A stretch of DNA of 64,000 nucleotides from Schizochytrium sp. TIO01 (Eukaryota > Sar > Bigyra > Thraustochytrida > Thraustochytriidae). The stretch is taken from contig SMSO01000031.1 in NCBI GenBank assembly GCA_004764695.1, positions 3,643,048 through 3,707,047 on the forward strand. Direction: 5' to 3'. Below the pieces are notes generated by a model that did not search any database, was not told where the DNA came from, and was given only the letters and a program-made list of their open reading frames with translations. The translations under genes were made by a program, and so were the position numbers. Of this stretch, positions 23,876 to 44,580 are shown piece by piece. Within the stretch, counting starts at the first letter, position 1, and each line of letters begins with the position of its first letter.

Positions 23876-26800
23876 TTAGGCAGTAGCAGATACATCATCA
23901 GCCCGGGGCGCGATAGTGAGAAAATCCGACTTCAAATAGGTTCGGTGTTCAGGCTCGTAGTATAAATATGCGTGGGTAGCATGAGTGGTGAACTGCCCAA
24001 TGTGTCGCGCAATGAATACCAATGCGATTTCCTCTTGTGCTTTTGCTTCAAGCCCACGCCAGTAGAGTGTCACTAGACCAGGTGTAACCTCAAACATCTC
24101 TATGCCATTTTCTGTTGAACTGACGAGGGAGCGAAGGGCTTCCATATCAGGTTCTAGTCCAGACTCATAGCCAACTCGGAGAATTGGCATAGAGACAGGA
24201 ACCCGCCTGGTATTTGTGATTTGCAGTTGCTTCGTTACAACAGAACCAACCATGGTTGGCGGCGATGGTAAGAACTGCCTTGCACTGGTTGTCAAACGCT
24301 CAAATAACGTGATTTTAGGTGTGGCAAAGGCAATATGAAGAGCGCATGCAGTACTTGATACAGGATGCCCAACCTTGTACTTGACGGAAAGAAGGTACGG
24401 CACATTTTCACGAATATGGTTTGCCAGATACTTGACAAGCATGTTAACCTGAAACTTACTCTCTTGCCCAACATCATATTCTTCAACTATATTTTGCTTT
24501 GAACTAGTGAAGTTCAATTTTGTTTTCGGAAAGGCATTTACTCTGAGGGCGAGAACACCTCTGGCTTCCTTTCCTTTCTGAGCCTCATTCCATAAGGTGA
24601 AAGCCTGCAATGCCAGTGCTGTAGCTTGAGTGGAACCAAAATTATTGTTTTGCATGCGTGCTGCAATGCATTGGATAGCACGGCGTGCATTTGGCTGCCA
24701 GATTTGCTGCTTACTTTCCAGCCAAGCAATTGCAGCAAGTGCGGTCACCTCGTTAAGGTAGCCAAAAGCGTTGACCTGCGTAGTAATTGTCATGGCCTCA
24801 GGTTTCTCCACACACCCTGTCACTTTGGACTGCATGGTTGTCAGTTTGAATAAAACCGCATCTATAGCCTTTTGTTGCTCTATGGATTGCACAGCGATAA
24901 GGGCCGACACTGACAGAGCCAAAACATAAGGGTCGATGCTCTGTTCCAAGTTGGCTCTCATCTGCAGAATTTCTGGTTGCAGGTCCGTGGAGGAGAGCAC
25001 TTGAGAACGAAGAAGAGACCACGTGATGTATGCATTAGTTGTCAATTCCGGTGCACGGCCAAAGCTATCAAGAGCCTTGACAGATCTTTTAAAACTGCCT
25101 TGGCCGTCGCGGCGACTCATTAACCAGTTTTTCGTTCGTGCAAACATTTCCTCATCCACGAGATTTCCAAGACCAAGCTCTGGGCGACGCATTTCTGCAA
25201 ATTGCACAAGGCCGTAGGCGGTCAGCGCTTCATGACCAGGACTTCGTCCAAACCAGTCGTACCCGCCCGTGCTGGCTTCAAACTTAATCAATCTAGCATA
25301 ACCATTTCGAAGCTTCGCCTGCGCTTCGCCAATTAGTTGCTGTACGCCAGGATCACGCTGGTCCTCTAGATCAAGACTCAACAAACTGCGCAGTAGAAGT
25401 AGCATAGGATAGGTTGTAGAACTTGTCTGCTCGAAACAGCCATGTGGTTCGGCGATAAGCGAACCCAGGGATTTGATTACCTGAGAACCCATTTGAAAGA
25501 ATACCTCAGCTTCGACAGTTACCTTCTTTTTAATAATGTTATCAGGAAGAGGCCCAAAGTTCTCTTCTACTTCAGTGACTTCACCCTTTGTAATGCCACC
25601 AATGTTTTTCACAATATCCACTCCGTAGTCATTGACCTGAAGACTGTACTGCCCACGTTTCTTGCCACCAGACTCCGAGTGAGCATAAACACGAAATGTA
25701 TTGACGCCAACTTGGTGCAAGTTGGCGGTAATTTTGGCCGAAACCAAACCTTCAGAATTTGCCTTTAGTTGACTCTCATAGATAACGCCGGGTCGTTTTC
25801 CTGTTGAGTCTTGCTTGTTGTTGGAAGGTAAAGGATAGTGAGTAATGAAAGTTTTGATTTCCTCATGAGGCTTTGCGCGTAAAACAAGTTGCAGAATGAG
25901 CACATCTCCAGTGAACGCATGCGCGGGGATGTCGAGTTCGATTGAAAGAGGTTCCGACACCACGAGTTCTTTGTCAGCCTGACCGAGGGCACCATTTTCA
26001 TCCCATGCGTCAATCCGTACCAAATAAGTGCCAGCTTTCATAATATTGAAATTCATAGCCCAACTATAGGTTTGAGACCGGTGGTCAAAAACTGTCTTGC
26101 CCTCAAGGTTAGCATAGATCGTCTCTGATTGTTGTCGAATTCGAAAACCACCGTGTCTAGCCATGCGCTTGGCTAGCATTGGGTTCTCTGGAACTCCAAA
26201 ATCCTCTGCTATGTCATCTTGGTCGAAGATGTTAGCGTTTTCCTGCTCGCCCATAGCGGGTAGTGCCATTGCATTCTTGAAGTGAACAAATCGTTGAAAA
26301 CGAGCGTCACGGTGGTTTTCAACTTGGAGCATACCACCTACAGCGGCGAAAGCAACTAGGTCTTGCTGTTCATCCTGGTTCCACGGGGATTGGAATCGAA
26401 TTATGGATTTACGAGTACTGCGCTTTGGGTCTTGGGCTCCGAAGTACAGCTGGGTCTCAGGCACACCCAACAACTTGGCAAGGCGCAAAGACTCGCCATT
26501 ACTATTTCTTTGGGACCATCTTGACTTCAAGTTGTTGAAGAGACGCTTCCGCCAGCCTTGAACCCCAAGCAAGAGATCAAGAGCCTTTCTGTTCTCTCCT
26601 AAGTAGTCATTTACAGAGAGGAACTCATCCACCTCGTTCTCAAGTAGAACACTTTCCCGGAGCGAGGGATGCCAGCGCCGTGTAGGGTATTGTTTCAAAC
26701 GAGAAAGGTCCACAACAGTGATGGCGAGACTTGCTTGTTTGTTTGTCGAAACCTCTAGTGAGATTGCACTGTTGGAAGTAACAGTGGACTGGCCTGAGAT

Positions 26801-28459
26801 CTCAACATCGATCTTTTGCAGAGGATCTACGAACTTTAAAATCTCTCCGTACAAAGTCTCTAACGATGATTGAGAGTGCTGCTCCGAGGAGGCAGACAGA
26901 CGAAGTACACCACTATATCCTTTCAATTGAAGTGAGTGTTGTGAGGTCAAGTATTTAGTTGACTTTGCAGTGGTGCTGCTGATAAGAAGGTCGTTCTTCC
27001 AAAGGTTCAAGCTGATTGACGTTGTTCTTGAGGAGCAAACTTCAAAATGAATCGCCTCATCCTCGTATACGCTGGAAGAGTCCCCCGACGGCTCTGAGTC
27101 GATGGAAATGCCAGGACTAGCACGAGGCAACTCAAACGTCTCGCGCGAGTCGCTTCCAGTGAGACGCAAAAAATACGCTTCGTTCTCGATTGGTGTAAGA
27201 AAAAACCAGCCCCGGCCTTCATGACCTGTTTCCACTGGTTCATGAGATATCACGTTTTCTTTACTGTCAATGACATTTCCACGAATGTCAACAGGTTCAC
27301 CAGTTCGTGAGGACCTTGCCTCAAAGAATACCTTATTTTGGCAACCTTCTACAAGATGTCCGCTATTTGGGAAGAAGTTGACATGAACCTCTTGAACAAG
27401 TGGAATAGGGACAACGTATGTTCTAATGCGCGGATCTTTGTTTACCTGAACGCTGAGTGTAGCTTGGTGAAAGGGTTCACTCGGCAGGGAAAGCCAAAAA
27501 GATCGAGTGCCTTGAGCATCGAGAGGTAGAACTGACGAGGCCCATCGACGCACTCCGTCAACAAGCAGATGTGCCTGCACAAATACACCCTGACGAGAAC
27601 CATCTCCGATACTCAGATCTCTTACATTTGAAACTGTTGCTTGAACCTTTTCACCAGGCCGGTAACCCCTTGCATGGAGTTGTACCTCTGCAGATAGCTG
27701 GGGGTTCGCTTTGGAGTCAAGTCGAACTTCAATCTCACGAGTTCCGGGTCCTAATAGAAGGATTGGCCCAAGATCTGCTCGAGTTTGAGCATGCTGTTCT
27801 CCGCGCACCTGTTGAATTTTAATTTGATAAACGCCTCCAGGTAAATTACTTGGGATAGGTGCGTTTTGAAAATAACTCATTGCCCAGAACACAGGATGCC
27901 TTTCTACTTCGACCTGTTTTTGATTAAGAAGTACAAACTCAAACTGGGATCTTTGAAGAACCTCTTCAGGAATTGCATCTCCAGTATGTAAATCGTACGC
28001 TGTCACCCAAAATTGGATTGATTCGCCAGGACGATAGAGGGGTCTATCTGTGAGTAAGTGCATGCGGCCACGACGCGGCGCTGCCATAAGTTTTGTGATA
28101 TCCTCAAGTGGATAGTGCAAGGCTTCTAGTTCCTTGCTTACATGTTCAAACTCCCAGTCATAGTAGAAATTCTCCAAGGTTTGCAGAATGTCTTGAGAAA
28201 ACAAGATGGACATAAATATGGCTGTGTACACGACTATGGTGGTGAGAATGATCTTCTGTTTGGACATCGCACGAGATCTTTGATGGACATCATTTTGTAC
28301 CGTGTGGTTGTTTCGTTCTGAGTCAGATACTTTCGCCCCTTTGACAGAAGTCTCCAACGCACTTACAGGTACCAAGAGGTCCTTGTCTTGTGCGTAGGCA
28401 CCATCGGCAGTACCATCCGGGATCTCTTCGCCGCTAGCGCGTACCTCACGTTTACGCAT
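23876..28459 (-). CDS. Membrane-anchored alpha-2-macroglobulin family protein with intact thioester
   Basis: This gene encodes 1,527 residues from the ATG at 28459-28457; the open frame runs three codons further to a TTG. A polar N-terminal tail of about 65 residues precedes one hydrophobic segment (about 67-87), predicting a type II anchor with the rest outside the cell or in a lumen. The MG1 region carries LLTDRPLYRPGESIQFWV, the hallmark of the bacterial-type (YfhM/ECAM-like) alpha-2-macroglobulins. The thioester motif GCFEQ is intact at residues 1007-1011 (25441-25427), and the thioester domain continues with GGYDWFGRSPGHEALTAYGL. Family members trap proteases: cleavage of a bait region exposes the thioester, which covalently captures the attacker. 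I infer a surface protease trap or opsonin-like role. The N-terminal membrane anchor in place of a cleavable signal peptide resembles bacterial membrane-tethered forms. Confidence 0.88.
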   Translation of the reverse strand: MRKREVRASGEEIPDGTADGAYAQDKDLLVPVSALETSVKGAKVSDSERNNHTVQNDVHQRSRAMSKQKIILTTIVVYTAIFMSILFSQDILQTLENFYYDWEFEHVSKELEALHYPLEDITKLMAAPRRGRMHLLTDRPLYRPGESIQFWVTAYDLHTGDAIPEEVLQRSQFEFVLLNQKQVEVERHPVFWAMSYFQNAPIPSNLPGGVYQIKIQQVRGEQHAQTRADLGPILLLGPGTREIEVRLDSKANPQLSAEVQLHARGYRPGEKVQATVSNVRDLSIGDGSRQGVFVQAHLLVDGVRRWASSVLPLDAQGTRSFWLSLPSEPFHQATLSVQVNKDPRIRTYVVPIPLVQEVHVNFFPNSGHLVEGCQNKVFFEARSSRTGEPVDIRGNVIDSKENVISHEPVETGHEGRGWFFLTPIENEAYFLRLTGSDSRETFELPRASPGISIDSEPSGDSSSVYEDEAIHFEVCSSRTTSISLNLWKNDLLISSTTAKSTKYLTSQHSLQLKGYSGVLRLSASSEQHSQSSLETLYGEILKFVDPLQKIDVEISGQSTVTSNSAISLEVSTNKQASLAITVVDLSRLKQYPTRRWHPSLRESVLLENEVDEFLSVNDYLGENRKALDLLLGVQGWRKRLFNNLKSRWSQRNSNGESLRLAKLLGVPETQLYFGAQDPKRSTRKSIIRFQSPWNQDEQQDLVAFAAVGGMLQVENHRDARFQRFVHFKNAMALPAMGEQENANIFDQDDIAEDFGVPENPMLAKRMARHGGFRIRQQSETIYANLEGKTVFDHRSQTYSWAMNFNIMKAGTYLVRIDAWDENGALGQADKELVVSEPLSIELDIPAHAFTGDVLILQLVLRAKPHEEIKTFITHYPLPSNNKQDSTGKRPGVIYESQLKANSEGLVSAKITANLHQVGVNTFRVYAHSESGGKKRGQYSLQVNDYGVDIVKNIGGITKGEVTEVEENFGPLPDNIIKKKVTVEAEVFFQMGSQVIKSLGSLIAEPHGCFEQTSSTTYPMLLLLRSLLSLDLEDQRDPGVQQLIGEAQAKLRNGYARLIKFEASTGGYDWFGRSPGHEALTAYGLVQFAEMRRPELGLGNLVDEEMFARTKNWLMSRRDGQGSFKRSVKALDSFGRAPELTTNAYITWSLLRSQVLSSTDLQPEILQMRANLEQSIDPYVLALSVSALIAVQSIEQQKAIDAVLFKLTTMQSKVTGCVEKPEAMTITTQVNAFGYLNEVTALAAIAWLESKQQIWQPNARRAIQCIAARMQNNNFGSTQATALALQAFTLWNEAQKGKEARGVLALRVNAFPKTKLNFTSSKQNIVEEYDVGQESKFQVNMLVKYLANHIRENVPYLLSVKYKVGHPVSSTACALHIAFATPKITLFERLTTSARQFLPSPPTMVGSVVTKQLQITNTRRVPVSMPILRVGYESGLEPDMEALRSLVSSTENGIEMFEVTPGLVTLYWRGLEAKAQEEIALVFIARHIGQFTTHATHAYLYYEPEHRTYLKSDFLTIAPRADDVSATA

Positions 28460-29491
28460 GGTTCGCAATAGTGTTGTCGATTCGAGTTTGCTCTGTTTTT
28501 TTCACGAGCAAACATTTTATCCTTTTCCCAAATTTACCTACTAGTAATATGTAGATAATACTAACTGCTAGCCATTCTTTATGACGCCTAATGTTGGAAG
28601 TACTTATACTATGATGGGTAAAGGAAGTCATACTCAGAAACTGTGCATTCGTTTGATCCATCTTTTCATTTCTTGACCTCGCACATCGTATCGAATGACA
28701 AACACTACTGCATACTGCGCATTTTCAGCCATACGGGGGTCGAGATTTGACGAGGTGTCGTTTTGTGTGGCTGCAGCACTAATGGAGCTGGCTTGGTGTG
28801 TCGCATATACATTCATTGTTGGATGATGTATTTTCTAATGAAGCCAGCCAGTCCAAAGGTCTTCAGAAGTAACTTAATTCATTTTGAAGCAATTTGTAGT
28901 TGCAAGATTCAGTGTAGTATAGCTCGGCAAGGGAAAAAGGAATCTTTAATAGTTCTTTGATAGCCTAAATATCGAGAAATGAGAATATGGTTGATCGAAA
29001 TTCACGCTCTTCTTGTATGATGTTGTTAAACCTTGCTTCAAGAATAGGCGCACGCTCTGAGGGAGAGAATGCGATCGAAACCGGCAGAAATTTGATGATG
29101 AATGCTCGTGAAAATTTGATAGCTCAGCTATATAGAAAAATATCTAACATCGCAAAAAGTGAAGATCTGGCCCATTACAGGTCAGGCTACCTCTTAATGC
29201 TTTATATCCTCTTTGTAGAGATCAACAATATGAAGACTGGATGCAGTGCTGAATATTTTTAATCGCACAATAAATAATCTCTGTTATATAATGCAATTTC
29301 CTGATTTACTCGGGGTGATGATTGAGGCATCAAACGTCGACATGATTTTTGGTGGATTGAATAACCCCCACCGCCACCTTGAGAACGCTTTGAAATAATA
29401 TGAAAAGTAAATTGTATTCTATCGTGGGTCAAGTCGATCAACAAATTTGAGAATCCTATACTTGGTTGAAAAATATTTGTTCATATAATGT
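28460..29491. other. Intergenic region between macroglobulin and HIT genes
   Basis: This 1-kb AT-rich stretch is presumably the macroglobulin promoter plus the 3' flank of the HIT gene. A 91-codon ATG frame on the plus strand (28987-29262) has no family resemblance, and I do not call it. Confidence 0.4.
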
Positions 29492-32884: not shown

Positions 32885-34888
32885 TTACTTGCGCTTAGGG
32901 GGCTCAAGAACCATCTCGTGAAGCGGGGAGCCGGCAGGCACCATAGGCAACACAAAGACATCCTTGTCCACAAACACCTCAAGCACAACAGGGCCCTCGT
33001 ACTCGAGGAACTTCTTCAAGGTCTCCTTGAGCTCAGACTGCTTGCTGCAGTACATGCCCTTTGCGCGCATGGCCTCAGCAACCTGGTCAAAACGGGGGTT
33101 AAACATTGGGGTACCAGAGTGGCGCTCGTCGTAGAAGAGATCCTGCCACACCTTGACCATACCCTGGTAGTTGTTCTGGAGAATCAAAACCTTGACACCA
33201 ACGTTGAACTCGGCAGCAGTGATGAGCTCCATACCGGTCATCGAGTATGAGGCATCACCATCAACATCAATCACAATAGCGTCAGGCTTGGCAATCTTGG
33301 CACCGATGGCGGCAGGGAGACCGTATCCCATGGTACCAGCACCACCGGAAGAGATCCACTGACGGGGCTTGGTCCAGGTCAAGAACTGAGCAGCCTGCAT
33401 CTGGTGGCTACCAACACCGGTGGTGATGTAGACTTCGCGGCCGGAGTTCTCCTGGATCTCGAGGAGCTGCTTGTTGAGCTCGGTGAGAACCTGCTGGGGC
33501 TTGAGGATTTCGTCATCGGTCTTGGCGGCATCGTAGATAAAGGGGTGCTTGGTCTTCCACTCGGAGATCTGGTCGAACCAAGGCTTGCGCTCCTTGAACT
33601 CAACATGCGGTGTAATATTGGCAAGGTTCTCCACGACGTCACCGAGGACAGCAACAGTGGGCTGCACAACCTTGTGAAGGTTCTTGGGGGAGATCTCAAA
33701 GTGCACAATACCACCACGGCCCTCGCGCTCTGCGCGCTTAGCCTCAGGGGCAAATGCGTCTACACGTCCAGTGACACGGTCATCAAAACGTGCACCAAGA
33801 GCAAGGATAAGATCGGCATTCTGCATGGAGTAGTTAGCGAAAGCAGATCCGTGCATACCAAGCATCTTGAGGGAAAGCGGGCTGCGCTCGTCAAATCCAC
33901 CGAGACCCTGCATGGTGGTGGTGACGGGGATGTTTGCCTTCTCTGCGAGCTCCTTGAGCACGCCGGGTCCGTCGAGCTGGCTCTGCATGATACCCTGGCC
34001 AGCGTAGATGACAGGGCGCTCGGCACGGTTGATCATCTCAGCGATAAGCTGGAAATCGGCAGTGCCCGGAGCTCCGATGCGCTCCTTGTGGAAGAGCTCC
34101 ACCTTCTGCTTCTGACGAACAGCCACCTGAGGAGAAGAGTCCGGGATCTGCTTCAACATCACAGCGGTGACATCCTTGGGAAGGTCGACAAGCACAGGTC
34201 CAGGTCTTCCGCTGGTGGCGATTTCGAAGGCCTCGTTGATGCGTCTAGGGAGGTCTTTGACATCCTTGACCATGACGTTCCACTTGGTGCAGGACCTGCT
34301 GATACCCACGATATCACACTCCTGGAAAGCATCCGTTCCGACGGCGGAAGTCGGCACCTGGCCAGTGAACACGATGAGAGGGGTACCGTCCATGTAGGCA
34401 TCCATGATGGGGGTGATGGTGTTGGTGGCGCCAGGACCAGAGGTCACGAGCACGATACCGGGTTTGCCAGTGGCACGAGCGTAACCTTCGGCCATGTGGC
34501 CTGCGCCCTGCTCGTGGCGAGCAAGGATGAACTTGAAGGCATCGCTCTCGAAAATGGCGTCGAAGACGGGAAGGATGGCACCACCAGGGTAGCCAAAGAT
34601 GGTGTCCACACCGTGCTCGCGCATGAGCTCGTGAAAGATCTGGGCACCGGTCATGCCCACAAAGCGGGCATCGTCGCTGGCCGCCTGCGAGGTGGCAGAG
34701 GCGAGGGAGCTCTGCGAGCGCAGGGAGGGCTTGGAGACGGCATCATTGGAGAGGTTGGTCTTGGCCTGGACGCCAGACGAGGAAATGTCGGGCACAGACG
34801 AAGACAGAGAAGTGGAGAGGGCACGGAGACCGGCGACGCGGGGGGCGCGGGAGAACACGGCCAGGGGCCGGGAAGCGGCTGACCGCAT
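32885..34888 (-). CDS. Acetolactate synthase catalytic subunit, copy 1
   Basis: This gene encodes 667 residues from the ATG at 34888-34886; the open frame extends to a TTG eight codons earlier. An Arg/Ser/Ala-rich leader without acidic residues in its first 40 positions predicts mitochondrial import. The mature part is a full ThDP-dependent acetohydroxyacid synthase: catalytic Glu126 in ARHEQGAGHM, FAD/ThDP domains, and the GDASY...NNYQGMVKVWQ thiamine-binding region near 541-575. It condenses pyruvate to acetolactate (or with 2-ketobutyrate), the first common step of Val, Leu and Ile synthesis. The segment GQVPTSAVGTDAF keeps the Pro (residue 179) and Ala (187) equivalent to herbicide-site residues P197 and A205 of plant enzymes. 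It is GC-richer than its surroundings and nearly identical in blocks to copy 2. A long AAAG repeat lies 89 bp upstream. Confidence 0.95.
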   Translation of the reverse strand: MRSAASRPLAVFSRAPRVAGLRALSTSLSSSVPDISSSGVQAKTNLSNDAVSKPSLRSQSSLASATSQAASDDARFVGMTGAQIFHELMREHGVDTIFGYPGGAILPVFDAIFESDAFKFILARHEQGAGHMAEGYARATGKPGIVLVTSGPGATNTITPIMDAYMDGTPLIVFTGQVPTSAVGTDAFQECDIVGISRSCTKWNVMVKDVKDLPRRINEAFEIATSGRPGPVLVDLPKDVTAVMLKQIPDSSPQVAVRQKQKVELFHKERIGAPGTADFQLIAEMINRAERPVIYAGQGIMQSQLDGPGVLKELAEKANIPVTTTMQGLGGFDERSPLSLKMLGMHGSAFANYSMQNADLILALGARFDDRVTGRVDAFAPEAKRAEREGRGGIVHFEISPKNLHKVVQPTVAVLGDVVENLANITPHVEFKERKPWFDQISEWKTKHPFIYDAAKTDDEILKPQQVLTELNKQLLEIQENSGREVYITTGVGSHQMQAAQFLTWTKPRQWISSGGAGTMGYGLPAAIGAKIAKPDAIVIDVDGDASYSMTGMELITAAEFNVGVKVLILQNNYQGMVKVWQDLFYDERHSGTPMFNPRFDQVAEAMRAKGMYCSKQSELKETLKKFLEYEGPVVLEVFVDKDVFVLPMVPAGSPLHEMVLEPPKRK

Positions 34889-34976
34889 GGGTGCTAGGGG
34901 TCGAGGGGTCAAGAGAAGTGCCTGCCTGCCTCGGAGCGGAGCGATTCTGGTGCTGCTTGTTCAAAGGCATTGATCG

Positions 34977-35080
<104 letters not shown>

Positions 35081-35155
35081 TATCTCATTTTTAAAACCAA
35101 ATTCAAATAAATAACTTTCAATAACTTTCATTAACTTTCAATAACTACTTTCTCT

Positions 35156-35196
35156 AATTAACTAACTAACTAGCTAGCTAACTAACTAACTAACGA
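35156..35196. repeat. TAAC/TAGC tetranucleotide array
   Basis: This is a run of TAAC units interrupted by two TAGC units, visible directly in the sequence. No function is suggested. Confidence 0.85.
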
Positions 35197-35287
35197 GCTA
35201 AATAATTTTTTACTGTCCTAATAATCTTCCATTTTAAAAGTTTATATTTTCTTTTTTCAAAGGGCATAATAGGTCAGAAACTCATGA

Positions 35288-35310
35288 GACTGACTGACTG
35301 ACTGACTGAC
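35288..35310. repeat. GACT microsatellite
   Basis: Five and three-quarter perfect GACT units sit at the edge of a GC-rich patch. Confidence 0.9.
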
Positions 35311-35920
35311 GGCAATTCTCGCGAGGCGAGCGAAGGAGGAGCTCCTTCTCGCGTGGCGCAGCTCCTGCTCTCTCCCCGAGGGTCCATATTCGGACGCGCC
35401 GTCGCTGCTGCCTCCTTCGCCTGCCGCTTCTCTGCTTTCTCTGCCCTGCCGCGCAGCTCCTCCCGAGGGAAAACGGATGACGATGGACTCTCTCTCTGTC
35501 TCTTCAAGCCCCATCCACATTACGTGGTAGCTGGCTGGCTAGCCATAACGCTAGCACCTCCATGCATATACACATACATACATGTAATACATAATGCATA
35601 TCATCAACAATACACATACATACATATATACATTCATTTATTCACATATATGGAGAGAGAGAGAGAGACACTCTTAAAGTTCATGCGGACCTTCAGTTTA
35701 TGGAAAGAGATCGATACATACAGACCGTCGTAAGTTCGGGTTGCGAAGGCGATGCTTTCTTTCGCTCCTCCGGCTCCCGCAGAGGTCACTCAGGGCCTTG
35801 ATCTTTGACAAGTCGCTGCTGCACATCATAACCATAACGCGGCAGATTGTATTGATTCGTTCGTTCGTTCATTCATTCATTCATTCATCCATTTGTGTGC
35901 TATATGTATATGATATGCAT

Positions 35921-36038
35921 ATGTATGTATATGGATGTATATGTATAAATGTATGTATAAATGTATGTATAAATGTATGTATAAATGTATGTATATGGAT
36001 GTATATGTATAAATGTATGTATAAATGTATGTATGTAA
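35921..36038. repeat. 12-bp minisatellite of TGTATGTATAAA type
   Basis: Repeated TGTATGTATAAA-like 12-mers are interrupted by TATATGGATGTA variants, giving a higher-order pattern in which the whole block recurs. It is preceded by a TTCG/TTCA tetranucleotide run at about 35,855-35,888. Confidence 0.85.
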
Positions 36039-36832
36039 GCACAGAATCGACCAATGCAGATATCGATGAATGTCCTGTGGAGCTGGAGTTGCGTTTCCGT
36101 GAGGGAGGGGGAGGCTGCTCTCAGACGGCCTGGATATGGGCTTTGGAGCAGATCGACAGGGCCAGGACAGTTGGTTTTCAGGTTCATTTTCAAGGAAGGC
36201 TAAGTTGAGAAAGGTAAAGAGCTTAACTTACGTTAAATTCAATGAAAGCTTTGAAAGAAATCGATTGTAGAATGAATGAAAGATTGAAACTAAAACTAAA
36301 TTCAAAAGGAATGTGGTGTGCCCATAAGAAGATGAATCAATCAACGACCCCTAAGTAGCCGCTAAGGGGGTCGTAGTCAACTTCGCCGCTCCGCTCTTTC
36401 AAGTCCTTCGCACGCCAGTTCATTTAGTTTCACTAACAATATGGAGAAAGAAGCAAACTAAGTACTTTAAAGTTCACTCACTCATTCATTTAAGCATTTC
36501 TTCTTAGAGGCTTTTCAAACTTACCTCCTACGGGTTGCTATGCACATGCTATGCCACATGGAGAAAAACTTTCTGACCTCTCGATAGTACGGGAGCGACT
36601 ACCGATAAAGGTAGCACTGGTGGTTGTGTGATTTTCTTTTTACTGGTGCCTCTGAGGGCGCTTTCAAAGGCGTGGACTTCTTGAAAGGGGGCGCAAGTGG
36701 GGTATAGCGCGCCCTGCAAGTAAAGAATGGGGGCACTACAGTAGAGTATCCGGGGCCACAGTGGGTTATCCGGGACCGCACACACGGAGGGGAGAGCAAC
36801 GAAGCACGCATAAGCAGTCACTAACAGACAGA

Positions 36833-36860
36833 AGACAGACAGACAGACAGACAGACAGAC
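36833..36860. repeat. GACA microsatellite
   Basis: Seven uninterrupted GACA-phase tetranucleotides are present, with imperfect copies flanking them. Confidence 0.9.
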
Positions 36861-37408
36861 TAAAATGCAGACAGACGGCCTTCGAGGTCGGAGGCGCAGG
36901 CACAGCGTCGCAGAGGCCGACTCGTGCCCGAGGAGAACCAGGCCAAGGGCACGCGTACAGCGAAGGCCACGCGTAAGCAAGCGAGAGTGAGCGCTATCCA
37001 CTGTTTTCGTACAGATTTATTATTATTATAATTATTAAATTAAATTAAATTAAAGTAAATTAATAAATTCAAAGAATAAATAAAAACTAAAAAAGAGAGT
37101 CACCACCGTCGATTAAAAATGTCCTTCCCTCATTCACTGCTCCTTGTGCCTTTATTTAGGTTGTTTTATTTTGAATTAAAAACATTATTTTATTATTTTG
37201 AAAACGTTATTATTTTTATTACTATTTTTAAAGAAACTAATCTAGCAAAACTACAGTATAGTGGGAAGGAAAAAAGAAAAAAAAAAAAAGAGGAAGAGGG
37301 GCTACTACTTAATTGTAGGCCTAGCCGTGTTAGCATAATGGCTAGGTAGCATTTATTTCCTGTTCTATCTTCTTTTCACTAACAATAAAAGTAACAATAA
37401 GTGAAGGG

Positions 37409-37491
37409 AATGCAATGCAATAAGTGAAAGGAATGCAATGTAATGCAATGCAATGCAATGCAATGTAATGCAATGTAATGCGATTCAATGT
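37409..37491. repeat. AATGC pentanucleotide array
   Basis: This is an imperfect array of AATGC units with AATGT variants. No coding or structural role is apparent. Confidence 0.85.
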
Positions 37492-39958
37492 AGCGGAATC
37501 GATGCCTTCCCTTAGGCCTCGCGCTGCCTCCAAGAGGCTAGGCGCACTGTGCAGATGCAGGAAGGAAAGTCTAGCGTCAGTGCCGTGAAAGCGGGCCGGT
37601 TTCGGGAGGTTGACCTCGATGCGTCAACGAATTGCACTCCGTTTTAGGCAGTCCCACACGCTTTCGGAAAGGAGGCATTCAGGCTGTACTGGCGGAGCGC
37701 TAGATCCCAGTTATGGTTTACGTTAGGACTCCCTTGGCGGTGGGTGGCAGCGAGCAATTCGCCTACTTCCCGTGGATTTGTTGATGATATGTTGTTGCCA
37801 TTGGTGGCCTTCAAGTTTGCGATTCCCAAGTCCTTCTTGAGTCTCGACCAACACATGAGGTTGAAGAACTAAGTGAGGGCGGCGACCGACCTCAAGTGAG
37901 GATAACGCCAGTTGTCCAGTATGCCAAGTCTCCGTTGATGGCGATATTGAGGTGAATCTCGAGGTTGATCTTGGCTCGCGCTCCTTGAAGAGGTCAATAT
38001 CCACGAGCTCCTCGATTTTGCGAGGAAAACAAGTATGTAGAAGGATGTGTTCACGCGAAGCTTGCTTCTTCTTCGTTGAAAGGGATGCAATTGCAGACAA
38101 TGACAGTGTCAGAAGAAAGAACAACCGACCCTTTGTGGACGATGCATCGTGAGTCTTCAGCTTTGATCGTTTGCGCTTCACGAGAAAGAAACAAACAAGC
38201 ACTCCTGTAGAAAATGTGAGCTTGTACCTCTAGAGGTATCCACTAGTTCTGTTTTTCTGTCGAAGTCATAAGGTTATTCATCTTCGATCAACATTGCGAT
38301 GTCGTCTAAAGCCGTGGCCAAGAACACACTCCTTTTTCTAATACCCTTTTGGGAAAGGCCACCAACTGCTAGTACAGCTCCACGAACACGAACACGAACA
38401 CGACTACGAGCACGAGCAAGCAGATCCGGATTCTCCACTTCACTTGCTATCATAGGTTAGAGTCCACCACCAATAAATAATTATAATTTTACCTTTTTCC
38501 TTTTTATGAATTCTAAAGTAATGGAACAACAAACTAGAAACTCAGGCAAACCCTGGTTGTCTTGACTGTCCACGGTTATATTCTGAAAGTTTGGGTCGTG
38601 GATCGTGATGGCACCGTCCAAAGGATGGTGATGTGGATAATTCTACCTAGGTAGCACGTGCTCTGCCTGCTTTTGTTTCTAAAACTAAAAAGCACACGCG
38701 CAGGATTGATGACGCCAGAATTGAAAGTCTACAATCGAAAACGATGTTGTATCCGCTCTGTAATTGATGTTAACTTAGTGCTAATAGGCGGCTCTTTTCC
38801 TCCCTTTGACTCCTTTCCGTCTTCTGTTCTCGGGCCACTCCCGCGAGTGCTTTTGAGAATGAGCTCACCTGTTTTAGTTTTTAGGTAATAACATTAATCA
38901 TGCATCGCAAGACGGCTATTAAGACCGACATCCATCCAGGTGCCCGTTATCAGCGCAGGTGATTCATAGAGATCTTCTTTAAAACTTTCTCGACTGCGTG
39001 TGCGATGACCTCCGTCTTTGACTCAGGTACCTAATGATTGCTCAAACGTTGATTGATTCGATTCAGGGCAATCTGGAACTGGCTGTCAGTCCGAAGGTGG
39101 TGGTGCTGGATGGAGGCCTTATAATAGGCCACCTGAAAGCACAGCAGAGAACTATACTGGTAATGGCGACAACAACAGAATCTGTAGCACTGCACTTCAC
39201 CACGACACGAATTGAGTTGCAAAGTGATAGTGCTACTTATTGAGGTGGTAGTGCCAGGCAGGTCCTATCTACGTAATCACCCTTGTAATTGGTGCTAGTA
39301 GTAGCAGTTATAGTAGCTACTCCATGACTCTCTAGCAAGCTGATTGAGAAGTGACCAAGATATATGTGAGAAAATGTGTATTCGTTTTCAGAGCCTTGGA
39401 GTCTCAAGCATTGCCCTTAGGAAAGGAGTGATTGCATTGCTCGATGGCAAATGGTCAGCTTGTAGGATTATGTAATTTGTATGTTGCAGTGGTAGTGCAG
39501 TTTTGTAAGATCTCCTCAGCAGCGTAATCCCAAGTGGCTTTTCAAGAATTCCTTATAGTTCTTCGATGGTTCGAAGTGAGGAAAGAACCTGCCGGAATTT
39601 CAACCACCATTGTTTCTTGATTCACGGCAAGAGGTCAGTGCTGCTAGTAGAGGTTGCTGATAGCAACTACCTACCCAAACCTTGCGATTCCTCACAAAAC
39701 AACCAACTTTGCTGACTGCCAAGCGAAAGAGATTTCTTTGCACTTGTGGTTCTTATTTTGAGCGGATATATTAGAAGGAAGCAAGATAAGATAGGATTGT
39801 TGGTTACTTCATATCGCTAACAGAATTGGGTAATTCAACGTCACAAACTTCACTCCAATGATCAAAGGAAAGCGTAAAATGTAATTATAAAGCTTTATAG
39901 ATTACTGCAATGCTGCTTCATGAAATACACATGTAAAGAAGGAATGACCTCCTCTAAG

Positions 39959-41971
39959 TTATTTACGAGAACGCTTAGGAGGCTCCAGAACCATCTCGTG
40001 AAGCGGGGAGCCACCGGGTACCATAGGCAACACAAAGACATCCTTGTCCACAAACACCTCAAGCACAACAGGGCCCTCGTACTCGAGGAACTTCTTCAAG
40101 GTCTCCTTGAGCTCAGACTGCTTGCTGCAGTACATGCCCTTTGCGCGCATGGCCTCAGCAAGATGGTCAAAACGAGGATTAAACATTGGGGTACCAGAGT
40201 GGCGCTCGTCGTAGAAGAGATCCTGCCACACCTTGACCATACCCTGGTAGTTGTTCTGGAGAATCAAAACCTTGACACCAACGTTGAACTCGGCAGCAGT
40301 GATGAGCTCCATACCGGTCATCGAGTATGAGGCATCACCATCAACATCAATCACAATAGCGTCAGGCTTGGCAATCTTGGCACCGATGGCGGCAGGGAGA
40401 CCGTATCCCATGGTACCAGCACCACCGGAAGAGATCCACTGACGGGGCTGGATCCAGGTCAAGAACTGAGCAGCCTGCATCTGGTGGCTACCAACACCGG
40501 TGGTGATGTAGACTTCGCGGCCGGAGTTCTCCTGGATCTCGAGGAGCTGCTTGTTGAGCTCGGTGAGAACCTGCTGGGGCTTGAGGATTTCGTCATCGGT
40601 CTTGGCGGCATCGTAGATAAAGGGGTGCTTGGTCTTCCACTCGGAGATCTGGTCGAACCAAGGCTTGCGCTCCTTGAACTCAACATGCGGTGTAATATTG
40701 GCAAGGTTCTCCACGACGTCACCGAGGACAGCAACAGTGGGCTGCACAACCTTGTGAAGGTTCTTGGGGGAGATCTCAAAGTGCACAATACCACCACGGC
40801 CTTCGCGCTCTGCGCGCTTAGCCTCAGGGGCAAATGCGTCTACACGTCCAGTAATACGGTCATCAAAACGTGCACCAAGAGCAAGGATAAGATCGGCACT
40901 CTGCATGGAGTAGTTAGCGAAAGCAGATCCGTGCATACCAAGCATCTTGAGGGAAAGCGGGCTGCGCTCGTCAAATCCACCGAGACCCTGCATGGTGGTG
41001 GTGACGGGGATGTTTGCCTTCTCTGCGAGCTCCTTGAGCACGCCGGGTCCGTCGAGCTGGCTCTGCATGATACCCTGGCCAGCGTAGATGACAGGGCGCT
41101 CGGCACGGTTGATCATCTCAGCGATAAGCTGGAAATCGGCAGTGCCCGGAGCTCCGATGCGCTCCTTGTGGAAGAGCTCCACCTTCTGCTTCTGGCGAAC
41201 AGCTACGAGAGGTGTAGAGTCCGGAATCTCTCGAAGTACCACAGCGGTGACATCCTTGGGAAGGTCGACAAGCACAGGTCCAGGTCTTCCGCTGGTGGCG
41301 ATTTCGAAGGCCTCGTTGATGCGTCTAGGGAGGTCTTTGACATCCTTGACCATAACGTTCCATTTGGTGCATGGCTGACTGATGCCGATAATATCACACT
41401 CTTGAAACCCATCAGAACCTGCCACAGCTGTTGCGACCTGACCTGTGAACACGATGAGAGGGGTACCGTCCATGTAGGCGTCCATGATGGGGGTGATGGT
41501 GTTTGTAGCACCTGGACCAGAGGTCACGAGCACGATACCGGGTTTGCCAGTGGCACGAGCGTAACCTTCGGCCATGTGGCCTGCGCCCTGCTCGTGGCGA
41601 GCAAGGATGAACTTGAAAGCATCGCTTTCATAGATAGCATCAAAAACTGGCAAAATAGCACCACCGGGGTATCCAAAGATCGTGTCAACGTTATGATCCT
41701 GCATGAGTTCATGGAAAATCTCAGCACCTGTAAGACCAACAAATCGCGCGTCATCAGATGCTGCTTGCACAGTCGCAGCTGACCTTGCCAGCGAGCTTTG
41801 TGCCCTTACGTTTGTATCTTTAAATCCAACTTGACTGCTGCTTGAAGTCGAGTTGACCGAATTGTTTATAGTTGTGCTTGAAGATGATGCACGCAAAATC
41901 TTCTTTGTGTGGCGTCCAGCCAGCATAGCTGGACTTCTTGCTAAACGCCTAGAGGTTGGAGTCAACAACAT
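39959..41971 (-). CDS. Acetolactate synthase catalytic subunit, copy 2
   Basis: This gene encodes 670 residues from the ATG at 41971-41969; the open frame continues 17 codons to a GTG that would spoil the leader. The N terminus (MLLTPTSRRLARSPAM...) is a mitochondrial-type targeting sequence unrelated to that of copy 1. Catalytic Glu127 and the ThDP motif are intact, so it should perform the same reaction as copy 1. From 39,96x to about 41,617 it aligns to copy 1 at a constant 7,080-bp offset without indels, with long identical blocks broken by short diverged patches. Within one patch it reads GQVATAVAGSDGF: Ala180 and Gly188 replace the Pro and Ala found in copy 1, positions known in plants and yeast to govern sulfonylurea-type inhibitor sensitivity. 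Upstream of about 41,617 the copies diverge at synonymous sites, and copy 2 is more AT-rich. Confidence 0.94.
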   Translation of the reverse strand: MLLTPTSRRLARSPAMLAGRHTKKILRASSSSTTINNSVNSTSSSSQVGFKDTNVRAQSSLARSAATVQAASDDARFVGLTGAEIFHELMQDHNVDTIFGYPGGAILPVFDAIYESDAFKFILARHEQGAGHMAEGYARATGKPGIVLVTSGPGATNTITPIMDAYMDGTPLIVFTGQVATAVAGSDGFQECDIIGISQPCTKWNVMVKDVKDLPRRINEAFEIATSGRPGPVLVDLPKDVTAVVLREIPDSTPLVAVRQKQKVELFHKERIGAPGTADFQLIAEMINRAERPVIYAGQGIMQSQLDGPGVLKELAEKANIPVTTTMQGLGGFDERSPLSLKMLGMHGSAFANYSMQSADLILALGARFDDRITGRVDAFAPEAKRAEREGRGGIVHFEISPKNLHKVVQPTVAVLGDVVENLANITPHVEFKERKPWFDQISEWKTKHPFIYDAAKTDDEILKPQQVLTELNKQLLEIQENSGREVYITTGVGSHQMQAAQFLTWIQPRQWISSGGAGTMGYGLPAAIGAKIAKPDAIVIDVDGDASYSMTGMELITAAEFNVGVKVLILQNNYQGMVKVWQDLFYDERHSGTPMFNPRFDHLAEAMRAKGMYCSKQSELKETLKKFLEYEGPVVLEVFVDKDVFVLPMVPGGSPLHEMVLEPPKRSRK

Positions 41972-43285
41972 TTCTATCGATTGTAAAATCCAGTAAAGGA
42001 TATCACAATAAGACCACAGCACCGTTCCTCGAAAAGCTTACCGCTTACCAAGATCTTCGCGTTTGAGTATTCAGGTTTTGCCTCTCACTTGAACAATGAT
42101 TTATATTTCTTGCCATCCTGATAACCTGTATTAGTGTAGTATTATGTGCATTTTATTCAATCCTGTTTTGATTGGGCAATCACTCTTTGCAGGTTCCTGT
42201 CCTTTCTTGCCTCCCCCCGTAATACCTGTAATACCTCAGGGCAATGTTCTTGGCACGCCGCTAAAGTTAGTTCCCCGCGTTACCTCACGTTACATATATG
42301 AAGAGCACTCCTTTGGATTCTGAAAGAACCTATCTGTTGCCGTAGTTGAGAACGGGTCGCATCGAGGTTAGCTCGATACTCGAAGTTTCTGCCGCGTTCC
42401 AGGCGAGCGACGCTGCTCTTAAACACTGGAAATCAATGTACAGAGCGACTCCTTGAATACTAAAGTTTAGTATTTGCCAAGTGAATGAGTAATTCTTGCT
42501 CGTGACCTCAAGTCTACCTGGGCTCAGAACTAGACCATAAAACGACTTACGTTTCATAACCTCACGTTTCATGTATAGAGGTTTCAAAATGAGGTTTCAT
42601 AAATGCCTTTCAGTTTAAGTAGGTTATAAATTTGGTGGTTTCGAAATCAAGGAGTTGATAACTATTAGCAGTATAAGGAACAGGGAATCTTATGTTAGTG
42701 CAACAAAACGATGGATAGATAGATATATTACGTAAACGACGGTTCTCCTAAGCTGAACTAGGGTCCATTGTCGAGCAAGTTTCTGCTATTGTCTATGGGT
42801 ATCTCCGGATACGAGCCTAACTGATTCATGTTAATAATTTGTATTAAATGAGTTAGCGCAGGTTGAGCCCGTCTTGGCAGCCTCTGGAGGTAAGAATCAT
42901 GATGATTGTTTTTAATTGTAGCGTTTGAGCATATTCTTCTGAGTCCTGTTCAAGGAATCATCACCACCGAAAGCCTAAGTTGGACCTTCGATCGTGCCAC
43001 AGTCCATGTCGTTGGTTGCTGACAGATCATCATGCCAACCCAAGAAATCGTCGACCCTTGTAATGTAGTGGACTGGGAAGTAGGTGTTAGAGTAAGCTTT
43101 AGCTATAACGCTATCGACTGCTTGAGAAATAATGCAAAAAGTGAAAGAAAACAAAATTTTGATCGTCACAGAAAAAGCGCATCCTTGCAAGCAGGAATTG
43201 CGTAAAGTAGGTACCGACGTACTATTCTGCGCACCAAACCTTAAACCCGGGAAGAAGCGGGGTCGAGGGCATCAGCAATAGCACG
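41972..43285. other. Divergent promoter region between ALS copy 2 and the GDPD gene
   Basis: This 1.3-kb spacer between divergent genes shows no open frame with family signal. It lacks the long microsatellites seen upstream of ALS copy 1, so the two ALS genes have unrelated upstream sequence. Confidence 0.4.
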
Positions 43286-44580
43286 ATGTCAAACGTTTGT
43301 GTCAGCCCACGACCAGGCTTTGTGGAGAAGGAGGCGACGGGAACGGGTCTGGACCCTCTTGGCCAGAATGGCCGTGAAGCTGTTGAAGGTGGCGTTGACG
43401 CAGACCCTGAGGATGACGAGGAGATCGAGGAGATTTATGGCCTCGAACAGCCTATAAAGCGTGGAAACTCTATCGTGGTGGGTCATAGAGGTTACAGTGC
43501 CGAGTATCCTGAAAACACTTGTCTTGCCTTTCGCAAGGCACTCGAAGCTGGAGCTGCGGTGGTCGAATGTGATGTCCAGATGTGTAAAACAGGGTAAGTC
43601 CTCTTTCTCTAACTTTACTATTTCTAGTTATAAAACTTTATTTGAGCTTGGGAGTTCCATTGCATCTTCTCGCTGCAACCATAATCACCACAATCTACAA
43701 CTGGGAACTAACATGGAGAACTGAGTGTTTGTGTGAAAAAATGTATCTCGGTGCGGGTGCCTGGCTGGACATGGCATATGGTATGGTCTGACTTGGAGTA
43801 TAAAGGGAGGTAATCATAATGCATGACAACACTGTGGATCGAACGACAAATGGCAGCGGCAAGATCCCGCACATGACCCTTGACGAAATCAAGTCTCTGG
43901 ATGCAGGTATTAAGAAAGGAGACAAGTTCCGAGGTGAGCAAGTGCCTCTTTTGTCTGAAGCACTAGAGATTTTCGCCGGTCGAGATGATGACGCAAAGTT
44001 TCTCATTGAGCTCAAGTTTTTGATTACATGGGCTGGGCCAACACCATATAACGGGCTTGCGGAGGCAGTAGTTGAGATTGTTAAGGACGCAGGGGCTGAG
44101 AATAAGGTCATCGTACACTCCTTCATTGACACATACTTATTCACTATTAAACAGCTTGCCCCAGAGATCGAATGCCATTTGTTGTGTTTTCCCTGGCGCT
44201 GGACCTCTCAACTCTTGCAGATTGATTATGTCGATGGTTTCAGTCCAAATGTGCATTACGTTTCCCCAACTTTTGTCAAACGCGTACATGAGAGTGGGCG
44301 CAAGGTGTTCTGTTGGACAGTAAATGACAGTGACCACATGAGATACTGTGCAAGAATTGGAGTGGATGGAATCATCTCTGATCGAGTCGATGATGTCCGT
44401 GAAGTTCTCGCAGAAGAACTGACTCGAGAGATGACGCAGGAGCTAATGAATTGGAGACCGGCCAAGTCCTGGAAACTTTTTCTAGGCAATTACCTCGTTC
44501 TCTGGCCGATTTCCTGGTTCAGTGGGTTTTATGCTTATTTTCTCAAACCCAAGCGATCCTTACCCACTGTCGTGCTGTAA
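43286..44580 (+). CDS. Glycerophosphodiester phosphodiesterase family protein (two exons)
   Basis: Exon 1 is 43286-43593 and exon 2 is 43806-44580; joined they give 360 residues with no frame break. The fused sequence restores the GDPD core: [13 protein letters not shown] (about 68-80), ECDVQ (about 95-99), and after the junction [21 protein letters not shown], which supplies the catalytic His, Glu and Asp pattern of the family. GDPDs hydrolyse deacylated phospholipids (glycerophosphocholine and similar) to glycerol 3-phosphate and an alcohol. The C terminus holds FWCTVND-like barrel strands, then a hydrophobic segment (about 330-352: [13 protein letters not shown]...) followed by basic residues, suggesting a C-terminal membrane anchor. 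The N-terminal 55 residues are acidic and probably disordered. The exact substrate cannot be told. Confidence 0.88.
43594..43805 (+). other. GT-AG intron in the GDPD gene
   Basis: The donor AGG|GTAAGT at 43594 is followed by 212 bp and an AAAG acceptor ending at 43805. Removing it joins a phase-2 codon to make GGG and restores the family motif on both sides. It is the only intron I can define confidently here. Confidence 0.88.

What the first reader, a model, noticed from the sequence alone, without database searches (positions are those of the whole stretch)
32885..41971. Two acetolactate synthase genes with a mosaic of perfect identity and sharp divergence
The copies align at a constant 7,080-bp offset with no indel from their 3' ends to about 34,537/41,617. 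Blocks are identical at every base: 33099-33369 (271 bp), 33373-33721 (349 bp) and 33820-34114 (295 bp). Between them are short patches changed at many synonymous and some coding sites (34115-34160, 34274-34360), and beyond 34,537 synonymous divergence is heavy. Flanking DNA is unrelated. A uniform duplication clock cannot produce this; patchwise gene conversion can. The identical blocks carry copy 1's GC-rich codon style while copy 2's private segments are AT-richer, suggesting transfer from copy 1 to copy 2.
Basis: partly seen in the sequence, partly recalled or inferred. Interest (0 to 1): 0.72.

Follow-up and report, generated by a model that had tools for sequence, protein, structure and literature searches.

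The report
Patchwork-converted acetolactate synthase gene pair
Two neighbouring genes for the same amino-acid-making enzyme have copied most of their sequence from one to the other, yet stay sharply different in the loop that lines the enzyme's inhibitor-binding entrance.

Summary
Two intact fungal-type acetolactate synthase (ALS) genes lie 7,080 bp apart on one 9.8-Mb contig of a 64-Mb eukaryotic genome (thraustochytrid-like, inferred). No other close copy was found; one regulatory-subunit gene was found on another contig. Over 1,812 ungapped bp, nine runs of 35-349 bp are identical (1,403 bp). Between them, and 5' of 34,537, lie islands; silent sites are near saturation in the larger ones. 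Interlocus gene conversion is the best explanation. Codon style points to transfer mostly from ALS1 to ALS2, with one stretch suggesting the reverse.

The main one (34274-34366) covers the whole catalytic Q-loop. There the copies differ at 9 of 31 residues, including three inhibitor-contact positions (P187A, A190V, A195G). In that segment ALS1 matches yeast or Candida better than ALS2 (33/38 against 29/38), and with either as outgroup all polarizable changes fall on ALS2; other outgroups do not show this clearly.

I read this as concerted evolution that spares a specialised Q-loop, as in the opsin pair. Whether selection or only mismatch keeps the island is open. New member of a known kind, with a testable functional prediction.

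The parts
32885..34888 (-). ALS1: biosynthetic acetolactate synthase catalytic subunit, 667 aa from the likely ATG at 34888; GC-rich codon style, N-terminal leader of mitochondrial type (by eye)
   Evidence: (TIGR00118, 724 bits, cut-off 538)
39959..41971 (-). ALS2: second catalytic subunit, 670 aa from the likely ATG at 41971; private parts AT-rich and genome-typical
   Evidence: (TIGR00118, 715 bits)
34538..34699 (-). Unconverted 5' part of the aligned region (ALS2 41618-41779): silent sites saturated, 46 of 54 residues kept
34434..34537 (-). Identical tract 104 bp (ALS2 41514-41617)
34400..34435 (-). Small silent-only island, 5 silent changes
34365..34399 (-). Identical tract 35 bp
34274..34366 (-). 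Main divergence island: codons 183-213 = Q-loop and following segment; 9 of 31 residues differ (P187A, S189A, A190V, V191A, T193S, A195G, V202I, R206Q, S207P); ALS2 41354-41446
   Evidence: Q-loop definition from PMC9188596
34160..34273 (-). Identical tract 114 bp
34115..34159 (-). Second island, codons 252-266, 5 residues differ; no sign that ALS2 is the faster copy here
33820..34114 (-). Identical tract 295 bp, closer to ALS1 codon style
33723..33818 (-). Two near-contiguous identical tracts (50 and 43 bp) with ALS2-like codons in both copies: candidate reverse conversion
33373..33721 (-). Longest identical tract, 349 bp, ALS1 codon style
33099..33369 (-). Identical tract 271 bp, codon style between the two but nearer ALS1
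33080..33100 (-). Small island with 4 differences (Q610H, V611L and 2 silent)
32940..33081 (-). Identical tract 142 bp, ALS1 codon style
32933..32941 (-). Small island with 4 base differences holding A660G, the plant S653 / yeast G657 position (residue numbers partly recalled)

Best explanation
A lineage-specific tandem pair of ALS catalytic-subunit genes evolves partly in concert. Repeated short interlocus gene-conversion tracts, mostly ALS1 to ALS2, have recently overwritten about three quarters of the alignable coding region (1,403 of 1,812 bp lie in nine identical runs). Islands of old divergence remain; the principal one is the Q-loop over the substrate-access and inhibitor-binding channel. 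Shown: the mosaic, both open frames, low replacement relative to silent divergence in the large islands, the codon-style evidence for direction, and the location of the island. Inferred: that both proteins work in mitochondria with the single regulatory subunit found, and that the Q-loop island is kept because the two enzymes differ usefully there (inhibitor sensitivity or kinetics). I give about 0.93 to conversion and about 0.5 to selective retention of the island.
For: pS is 0.94-0.99 in the two largest islands against 2 differences in ~315 silent sites between islands. The longest run exceeds all 10,000 shuffles. Five tracts longer than 30 bp are separated by clusters of 4 or more differences (one search counts six intervals, one of only 26 bp). 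The remaining 14 differences in 32933-34114 are clustered, p = 0.00045. Identical blocks in ALS2 mostly carry the unusual ALS1 codon style. No other close copy that could act as donor was found. Island and Q-loop coincide: the loop is Arabidopsis residues 193-210, i.e. ALS1 183-200 by alignment of P197 and A205, and the island is codons 183-213. ALS1-ALS2 identity is 29/38 in the Q-loop segment but ALS1-yeast and ALS1-Candida are 33/38; in the 5' segment it is 40/46 against 30/46. ALS2-specific to ALS1-specific changes in the Q-loop are 8:0 (yeast), 7:0 (C. albicans), 5:0 (A. fumigatus 9yjz).
Against: No population data, reads or close relatives, so recurrence and selection are not shown directly. 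ALS1 agrees with A. fumigatus (29/38) and 6wo1 (28/38) in the Q-loop no better than with ALS2. With 6wo1 (C. neoformans, label recalled) as outgroup the Q-loop counts are 4:2, and with Phycisphaerae 3:2, with no contrast to the rest of the protein (Fisher p 0.47 and 0.83); with A. fumigatus the contrast is p = 0.32. Replacement divergence in the island (pN 0.14) is close to that of the 5' part (0.11), so no dN excess is seen. The replacement:silent ratio of the small remnants (7:7) does not differ significantly from the large islands (31:70; p = 0.13). Blocks 34160-34273 and 33101-33367, and more weakly 34436-34537 and 33821-34114, fall short of pure ALS1 style.
Confidence: 0.85

Rival explanations
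1. Gene conversion is real but the islands are neutral leftovers: once a short stretch is about 30% divergent, mismatch blocks strand exchange there, so the island perpetuates itself without any functional difference.
For: Island pN (0.14) is close to that of the unconverted 5' part (0.11), and the silent-only island 34400-34435 also survived. The Q-loop acceleration is not significant against the rest of the protein with three of five outgroups tried (A. fumigatus, 6wo1, Phycisphaerae).
Against: With yeast and Candida as outgroups all polarizable Q-loop changes fall on ALS2 (8:0, 7:0) while the rest of the protein shows 3:5 and 4:7 (p = 0.013 and 0.010). Three of the eight classical herbicide-contact sites differ against 30 of 604 residues overall (hypergeometric p = 0.005, post hoc, site list partly recalled).
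Confidence: 0.4
2. One large recent event (partial re-duplication of ALS1's 3' part into an old ALS2, or one long conversion) followed by point mutation.
For: From 34114 to 32942 the copies are nearly identical, with only 14 differences in 32933-34114.
Against: Three further identical tracts lie beyond 34114, separated by strongly diverged islands, and the 14 differences are clustered rather than scattered (p = 0.00045).
Confidence: 0.06
3. Assembly or short-read polishing artefact that falsely homogenised the copies.
For: No reads were available.
Against: Both copies lie on one 9.8-Mb contig with unrelated flanks and intact frames. Polishing is not expected to erase saturated divergence over 349 bp (reasoned, not tested). 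The blocks carry a codon style foreign to ALS2's own private parts, and saturated islands survive between them.
Confidence: 0.04
4. One copy was acquired horizontally and recombined with the resident gene.
For: ALS1 private GC3 (0.73-0.81) lies outside the 31 sampled ORFs (maximum 0.685).
Against: The regulatory-subunit gene has the same GC3 (0.79), so this looks like a native codon class. In the unconverted 5' segment ALS1 and ALS2 are closer to each other (40/46) than either is to the four fungal chains compared (33/46 or less).
Confidence: 0.03

Closest known systems
Paralog pairs with a peak of divergence under gene conversion (red/green opsins; RHCE/RHD; Teshima and Innan model)
   Same: Neighbouring duplicates kept nearly identical by conversion, with a narrow divergent peak over functionally important residues (opsins described in PMC3924837, passages; RHCE/RHD seen there as a reference title)
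   Different: Here function of the peak is inferred only, and no orthologues or polymorphism were available
GOT1p1/GOT1p2 of Tigriopus californicus
   Different: Several populations were compared there; one genome here
Fungal self-resistance ALS copies in biosynthetic clusters (harzianic acid, chlorflavonin, sdt and pts clusters)
   Same: A second ALS copy thought, and for ptsB shown in yeast, to withstand an ALS inhibitor; in the sdt study 75% of resistant yeast clones carried mutations at Pro192, the position that differs here (PMC12947280 and PMC12616698, passages)
   Different: No biosynthetic cluster was recognised around ALS2, and resistance of ALS2 is untested
Cryptococcus neoformans Ilv2p
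   Same: Chain 6wo1 (species label recalled) has Ala at the yeast P192 position and a GSD motif, as in ALS2; the species is reported fully resistant to sulfometuron methyl, probably through intrinsic resistance of Ilv2p (PMC4302243, passage)
   Different: 6wo1 keeps Ala195 and Arg206, which ALS2 has as Gly and Gln. PMC8548585 does not name the P192 position among the binding-site exceptions in a comparison that includes C. neoformans, so the species label or that list needs checking. Whether the species has a second ALS gene was not checked

Membership tests
Biosynthetic acetolactate synthase catalytic subunit (TIGR00118) | Score above the curated cut-off over the full model | tested here: met
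   724 and 715 bits against a cut-off of 538, model positions 1-555 of 557
Biosynthetic acetolactate synthase catalytic subunit (TIGR00118) | A regulatory subunit in the same genome | tested here: met
   One ALS_ss_C match on C31, ORF of 281 aa
Biosynthetic acetolactate synthase catalytic subunit (TIGR00118) | Enzyme activity | not testable with these tools
   No assay
Paralogs under interlocus gene conversion | Identical runs longer than chance, separated by strong silent divergence, in one alignment | tested here: met
Paralogs under interlocus gene conversion | Paralogs more alike than orthologues of related species, block by block | not tested
   No close relatives held; viral scan empty
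Divergence peak kept by selection (Teshima-Innan type) | Peak located on functional residues | tested here: met
   Island = Q-loop and inhibitor-contact positions by alignment to published residues
Divergence peak kept by selection (Teshima-Innan type) | Excess of derived replacements in the peak | tested here: inconclusive
   8:0, 7:0 and 5:0 with yeast, C. albicans and A. fumigatus, 4:2 with 6wo1, 3:2 with Phycisphaerae
Self-resistance ALS of a biosynthetic gene cluster | Biosynthetic genes next to the extra ALS | tested here: not met
   Pfam on 15 window ORFs (all 12 non-ALS ORFs of at least 250 aa listed and 3 smaller): no PKS/NRPS/terpene core, two short-chain dehydrogenases. Smaller ORFs, including those in 51-64 kb, were not scanned

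The most novel reading that the evidence does not exclude
ALS2 is a naturally inhibitor-insensitive or kinetically re-tuned ALS isoenzyme. Its specialised Q-loop (A187, V190, G195, Q206, P207) is kept by selection against steady overwriting by the housekeeping ALS1, so the conversion map itself marks the functional patch.
Probability: 0.35. Interest if true: 0.65.

Novelty: new member of a known kind. Interest (0 to 1): 0.45.

Why it matters
This gene-conversion mosaic sits on an enzyme whose inhibitor-contact residues are well mapped from herbicide work, so the island can be read as a functional hypothesis and tested in a few assays. If the Q-loop difference is functional, it is a natural route to an ALS-inhibitor-tolerant isoenzyme in a protist, and it shows that conversion maps can point to the residues that matter. 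It also warns that ALS-based dating or phylogeny in this lineage must exclude converted blocks.

Tried and rejected
Donor from a third copy: not found; two places match ALS1 DNA in the genome (the tool skips very common words). The other three hits of the TPP-enzyme N-domain are on C24; one is a 580-aa ORF, not compared further.

Viral or prokaryotic relatives as direct comparators: the viral scan gave none. The genome scan kept 80 of 86 relatives, by title all bacteria: 14 Phycisphaerae-type planctomycete loci at 52-57% and 66 others at 37-43%. 78 of the 80 were used (14 and 64); 2 were dropped as shorter than 400 aa.

Herbicide resistance as a recent, man-made selection: rejected as an explanation of the island. 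The silent sites there are near saturation, so the divergence should be far older than herbicides, and Ala at the P187 position is common in nature (13 of 14 Phycisphaerae-type loci; 6wo1).

Positive selection by dN excess: not supported. Replacement excess in small remnants: not significant (p = 0.13).

Codon-style direction test: clear for most blocks, but 34160-34273 and 33101-33367 fall between the two styles.

Literature: of 6 papers holding 'acetolactate synthase', 'gene conversion' and 'paralog', the 5 listed do not, by title and abstract start, treat ALS paralog conversion. One paper joins 'thraustochytrid' with 'gene conversion', on metal ATPases. Of 703 papers only 12 were listed, none by title on a thraustochytrid ALS gene pair. 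A look-up of the entry 6WO1 gave one unrelated paper, so its species label stays recalled. The labels A. fumigatus for 9yjz and C. albicans for the 6dek/6del sequence were confirmed; yeast for 6u9d is recalled (5fem, listed with a sibling sequence, is yeast).

Full report
WHAT WAS CHECKED. The two open frames run on the minus strand, 32885-34912 and 39959-42022. The likely starts are the ATGs at 34888 and 41971, both followed by Arg/Ser/Ala-rich leaders of mitochondrial type (read by eye, not predicted). Both score far above the curated cut-off of biosynthetic ALS catalytic subunit, TIGR00118: 724 and 715 bits against 538. Among solved structures the nearest to ALS1 are fungal enzymes, well ahead of the plant ones: C. 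albicans 6dek, A. fumigatus 9yjz, yeast 6u9d and C. neoformans 6wo1 (the last two labels recalled). The ungapped alignment extends to about 34699. Of 1,812 bp, 121 differ, and 30 of 604 residues differ.

IS IT MORE THAN CHANCE. The longest identical run is 349 bp; 10,000 shuffles of the 121 differences never gave more than 184. For silent sites alone the longest run is 194 degenerate codons against at most 113 in shuffles. Proportions of changed silent sites are 0.99 in 34538-34699, 0.94 in 34274-34366, 0.62 in 34115-34159 and 0.56 in 34400-34435. In the homogenised blocks there are 2 changes in ~315 silent sites. Divergence that is saturated and nearly absent in turn, within one gapless coding alignment, cannot come from one duplication date. 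The leftover 14 differences in 32933-34114 are themselves clustered (8 of 13 neighbouring gaps of 20 bp or less, p = 0.00045), so even this 'recent' part looks like several tracts. Counting only clusters of four or more differences as separators, there are five tracts longer than 30 bp (six intervals, one of 26 bp).

GENOME CONTEXT. The window lies on a 9.8-Mb contig of a 64-Mb, 37-contig genome, with no relatives held. ALS1 DNA matches only the two places found. One regulatory-subunit match lies on another contig. A PfaA-type PUFA synthase with several repeated matches to the carrier region of the profile is present (that this region is the carrier array is recalled); with long uninterrupted ORFs this suggests a thraustochytrid, an inference from recalled biology. 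An 18S search did not complete. The ALS pair is the only self-match in the window at E<=1e-10.

DIRECTION. GC3 of private ALS1 codons is 0.73 (N-terminal leader 0.81), of private ALS2 codons 0.38 (leader 0.39), of the identical blocks 0.67. In 200 kb sampled from 20 places, 31 ORFs of 250 aa or more have median GC3 0.42 and maximum 0.685, so ALS2's own style is the ordinary one and ALS1's the exception. The regulatory subunit shares the GC-rich style (0.79), which fits a strongly expressed housekeeping pair (inference). Codon-style likelihoods favour ALS1 style over ALS2 style in seven of nine blocks tested (in all seven P under ALS2 style is 0.0025 or less); of these, 34160-34273 and 33101-33367 also fall well short of pure ALS1 style (P 0.004 and 0.002), 34436-34537 and 33821-34114 less so (P 0.025 and 0.034). 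The other two blocks, together 33725-33817, fit ALS2's style (P under ALS1 style 0.001 or less) and may be a transfer in the other direction.

WHAT THE ISLANDS ENCODE. The main island is codons 183-213. In Arabidopsis the Q-loop is residues 193-210 (PMC9188596, figure-legend passage); with P197 and A205 aligned to ALS1 P187 and A195, this is ALS1 183-200, so the island begins at the loop's first residue and contains all of it. Differences there are P187A, S189A, A190V, V191A, T193S, A195G, V202I, R206Q and S207P. P187 is yeast P192, the site mutated in 75% of yeast clones resistant to a natural ALS inhibitor (PMC12947280, passages). A190 and A195 correspond to the Candida A191 and A196 that form hydrophobic contacts with the herbicide ring, and A660G lies at another variable binding-site position (PMC8548585, passages; correspondence by alignment). 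Changes at plant A205 are known resistance changes (PMC4698308, passages). Three of the eight classical herbicide sites differ against 30 of 604 residues overall (p = 0.005); the test is post hoc, and four of the eight sites (A122, D376, R377, G654) are recalled.

IS THE Q-LOOP SPECIAL. In the unconverted 5' segment ALS1 and ALS2 agree at 40/46 residues while ALS1 agrees with four fungal chains at 27-30/46. In the Q-loop segment ALS1 and ALS2 agree at only 29/38 while ALS1 agrees with yeast and Candida at 33/38 (with A. fumigatus 29/38, with 6wo1 28/38), and ALS2 agrees with the four chains at 24-26/38. Polarising changes by outgroup gives ALS2-changed:ALS1-changed 8:0 in the Q-loop against 3:5 elsewhere with yeast (p = 0.013), 7:0 against 4:7 with Candida (p = 0.010), 5:0 against 5:2 with A. 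fumigatus (p = 0.32), 4:2 against 4:4 with 6wo1 (p = 0.47), and 6:0 against 3:4 with the consensus of at least three of the four (p = 0.049). With the Phycisphaerae-type majority it is 3:2 against 7:3 (p = 0.83). 25 of the 30 differing positions entered; positions 72, 75, 260, 262 and 675 were left out as poorly aligned. So acceleration of ALS2's Q-loop is supported by some outgroups and not by others, chiefly because Ala187 and Pro207 (and Ser193) recur in 6wo1 or planctomycetes. ALS2 residues seen in neither 6wo1 nor the 14 Phycisphaerae-type loci are A189, V190, A191, G195, I202 and Q206; at 190, 195 and 206 all 14 loci agree with ALS1.

FUNCTIONAL READING. Ala at the P192 position is natural elsewhere: 13 of 14 Phycisphaerae-type loci and 6wo1. 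C. neoformans is reported completely resistant to sulfometuron methyl, probably through its Ilv2p (PMC4302243, passage); but PMC8548585 does not list this position among its binding-site exceptions. ALS2 may therefore encode a sulfonylurea-tolerant isoenzyme, but the natural selecting factor need not be an inhibitor; P197 of this loop also contacts the second pyruvate (PMC9188596, figure legend). No biosynthetic cluster was recognised around the genes (15 window ORFs scanned), so self-resistance to an own product is not supported. Low replacement relative to silent divergence in the large islands suggests that both copies are under purifying selection.

ALTERNATIVES. A neutral island maintained by sequence mismatch is the main rival and is not excluded. 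A single large event, artefactual homogenisation and horizontal origin of one copy are each made unlikely by the evidence listed in the Rival explanations section. Known counterparts are the opsins (PMC3924837, passages) and GOT1 in Tigriopus (PMC3728101, abstract); this pair is a further member of that kind with an unusually well-mapped active site.

VERDICT. The finding is real and its gene-conversion reading is well supported. What is added is that the main island that escaped conversion is the Q-loop, with a testable functional consequence.

Noticed in passing
34977-35080: 26 perfect CTTT repeats 90-190 bp upstream of the likely ATG of ALS1; no array is reported at the corresponding place upstream of ALS2 in the same call.
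   Followed up: no
L017-L029, L092: Phycisphaerae-type planctomycetes carry ALS 52-57% identical to ALS1, against 37-43% for the other bacteria kept, with a fungal-like Q-loop motif; may bear on the origin of fungal-type ALS.
   Followed up: partly
23879-28468: An alpha-2-macroglobulin-like protein (TED and MG2 domains) in a likely unicellular protist.
   Followed up: no
14579-18019: A 1,147-aa protein with a nephrocystin-3/AAA-type NTPase N-terminus and WD40 propellers, an architecture like that of NLR-type proteins (recalled).
   Followed up: no
2236-9003: A 2,256-aa protein with RUN, PX and Rubicon-homology domains.
   Followed up: no
43286-44580: A glycerophosphodiester phosphodiesterase split over two ORFs (profile positions 1-35 and 42-243), probably by an intron.
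   Followed up: no
L009-L013 (G000:C4:608161-617209): PfaA-like PUFA synthase with repeated carrier-region matches; the open frame changes between 611037 and 611357, either a real split or an assembly indel.
   Followed up: no
L008:1429-2274: The ALS regulatory subunit has GC3 0.79, as high as private ALS1 and above all 31 sampled ORFs.
   Followed up: partly
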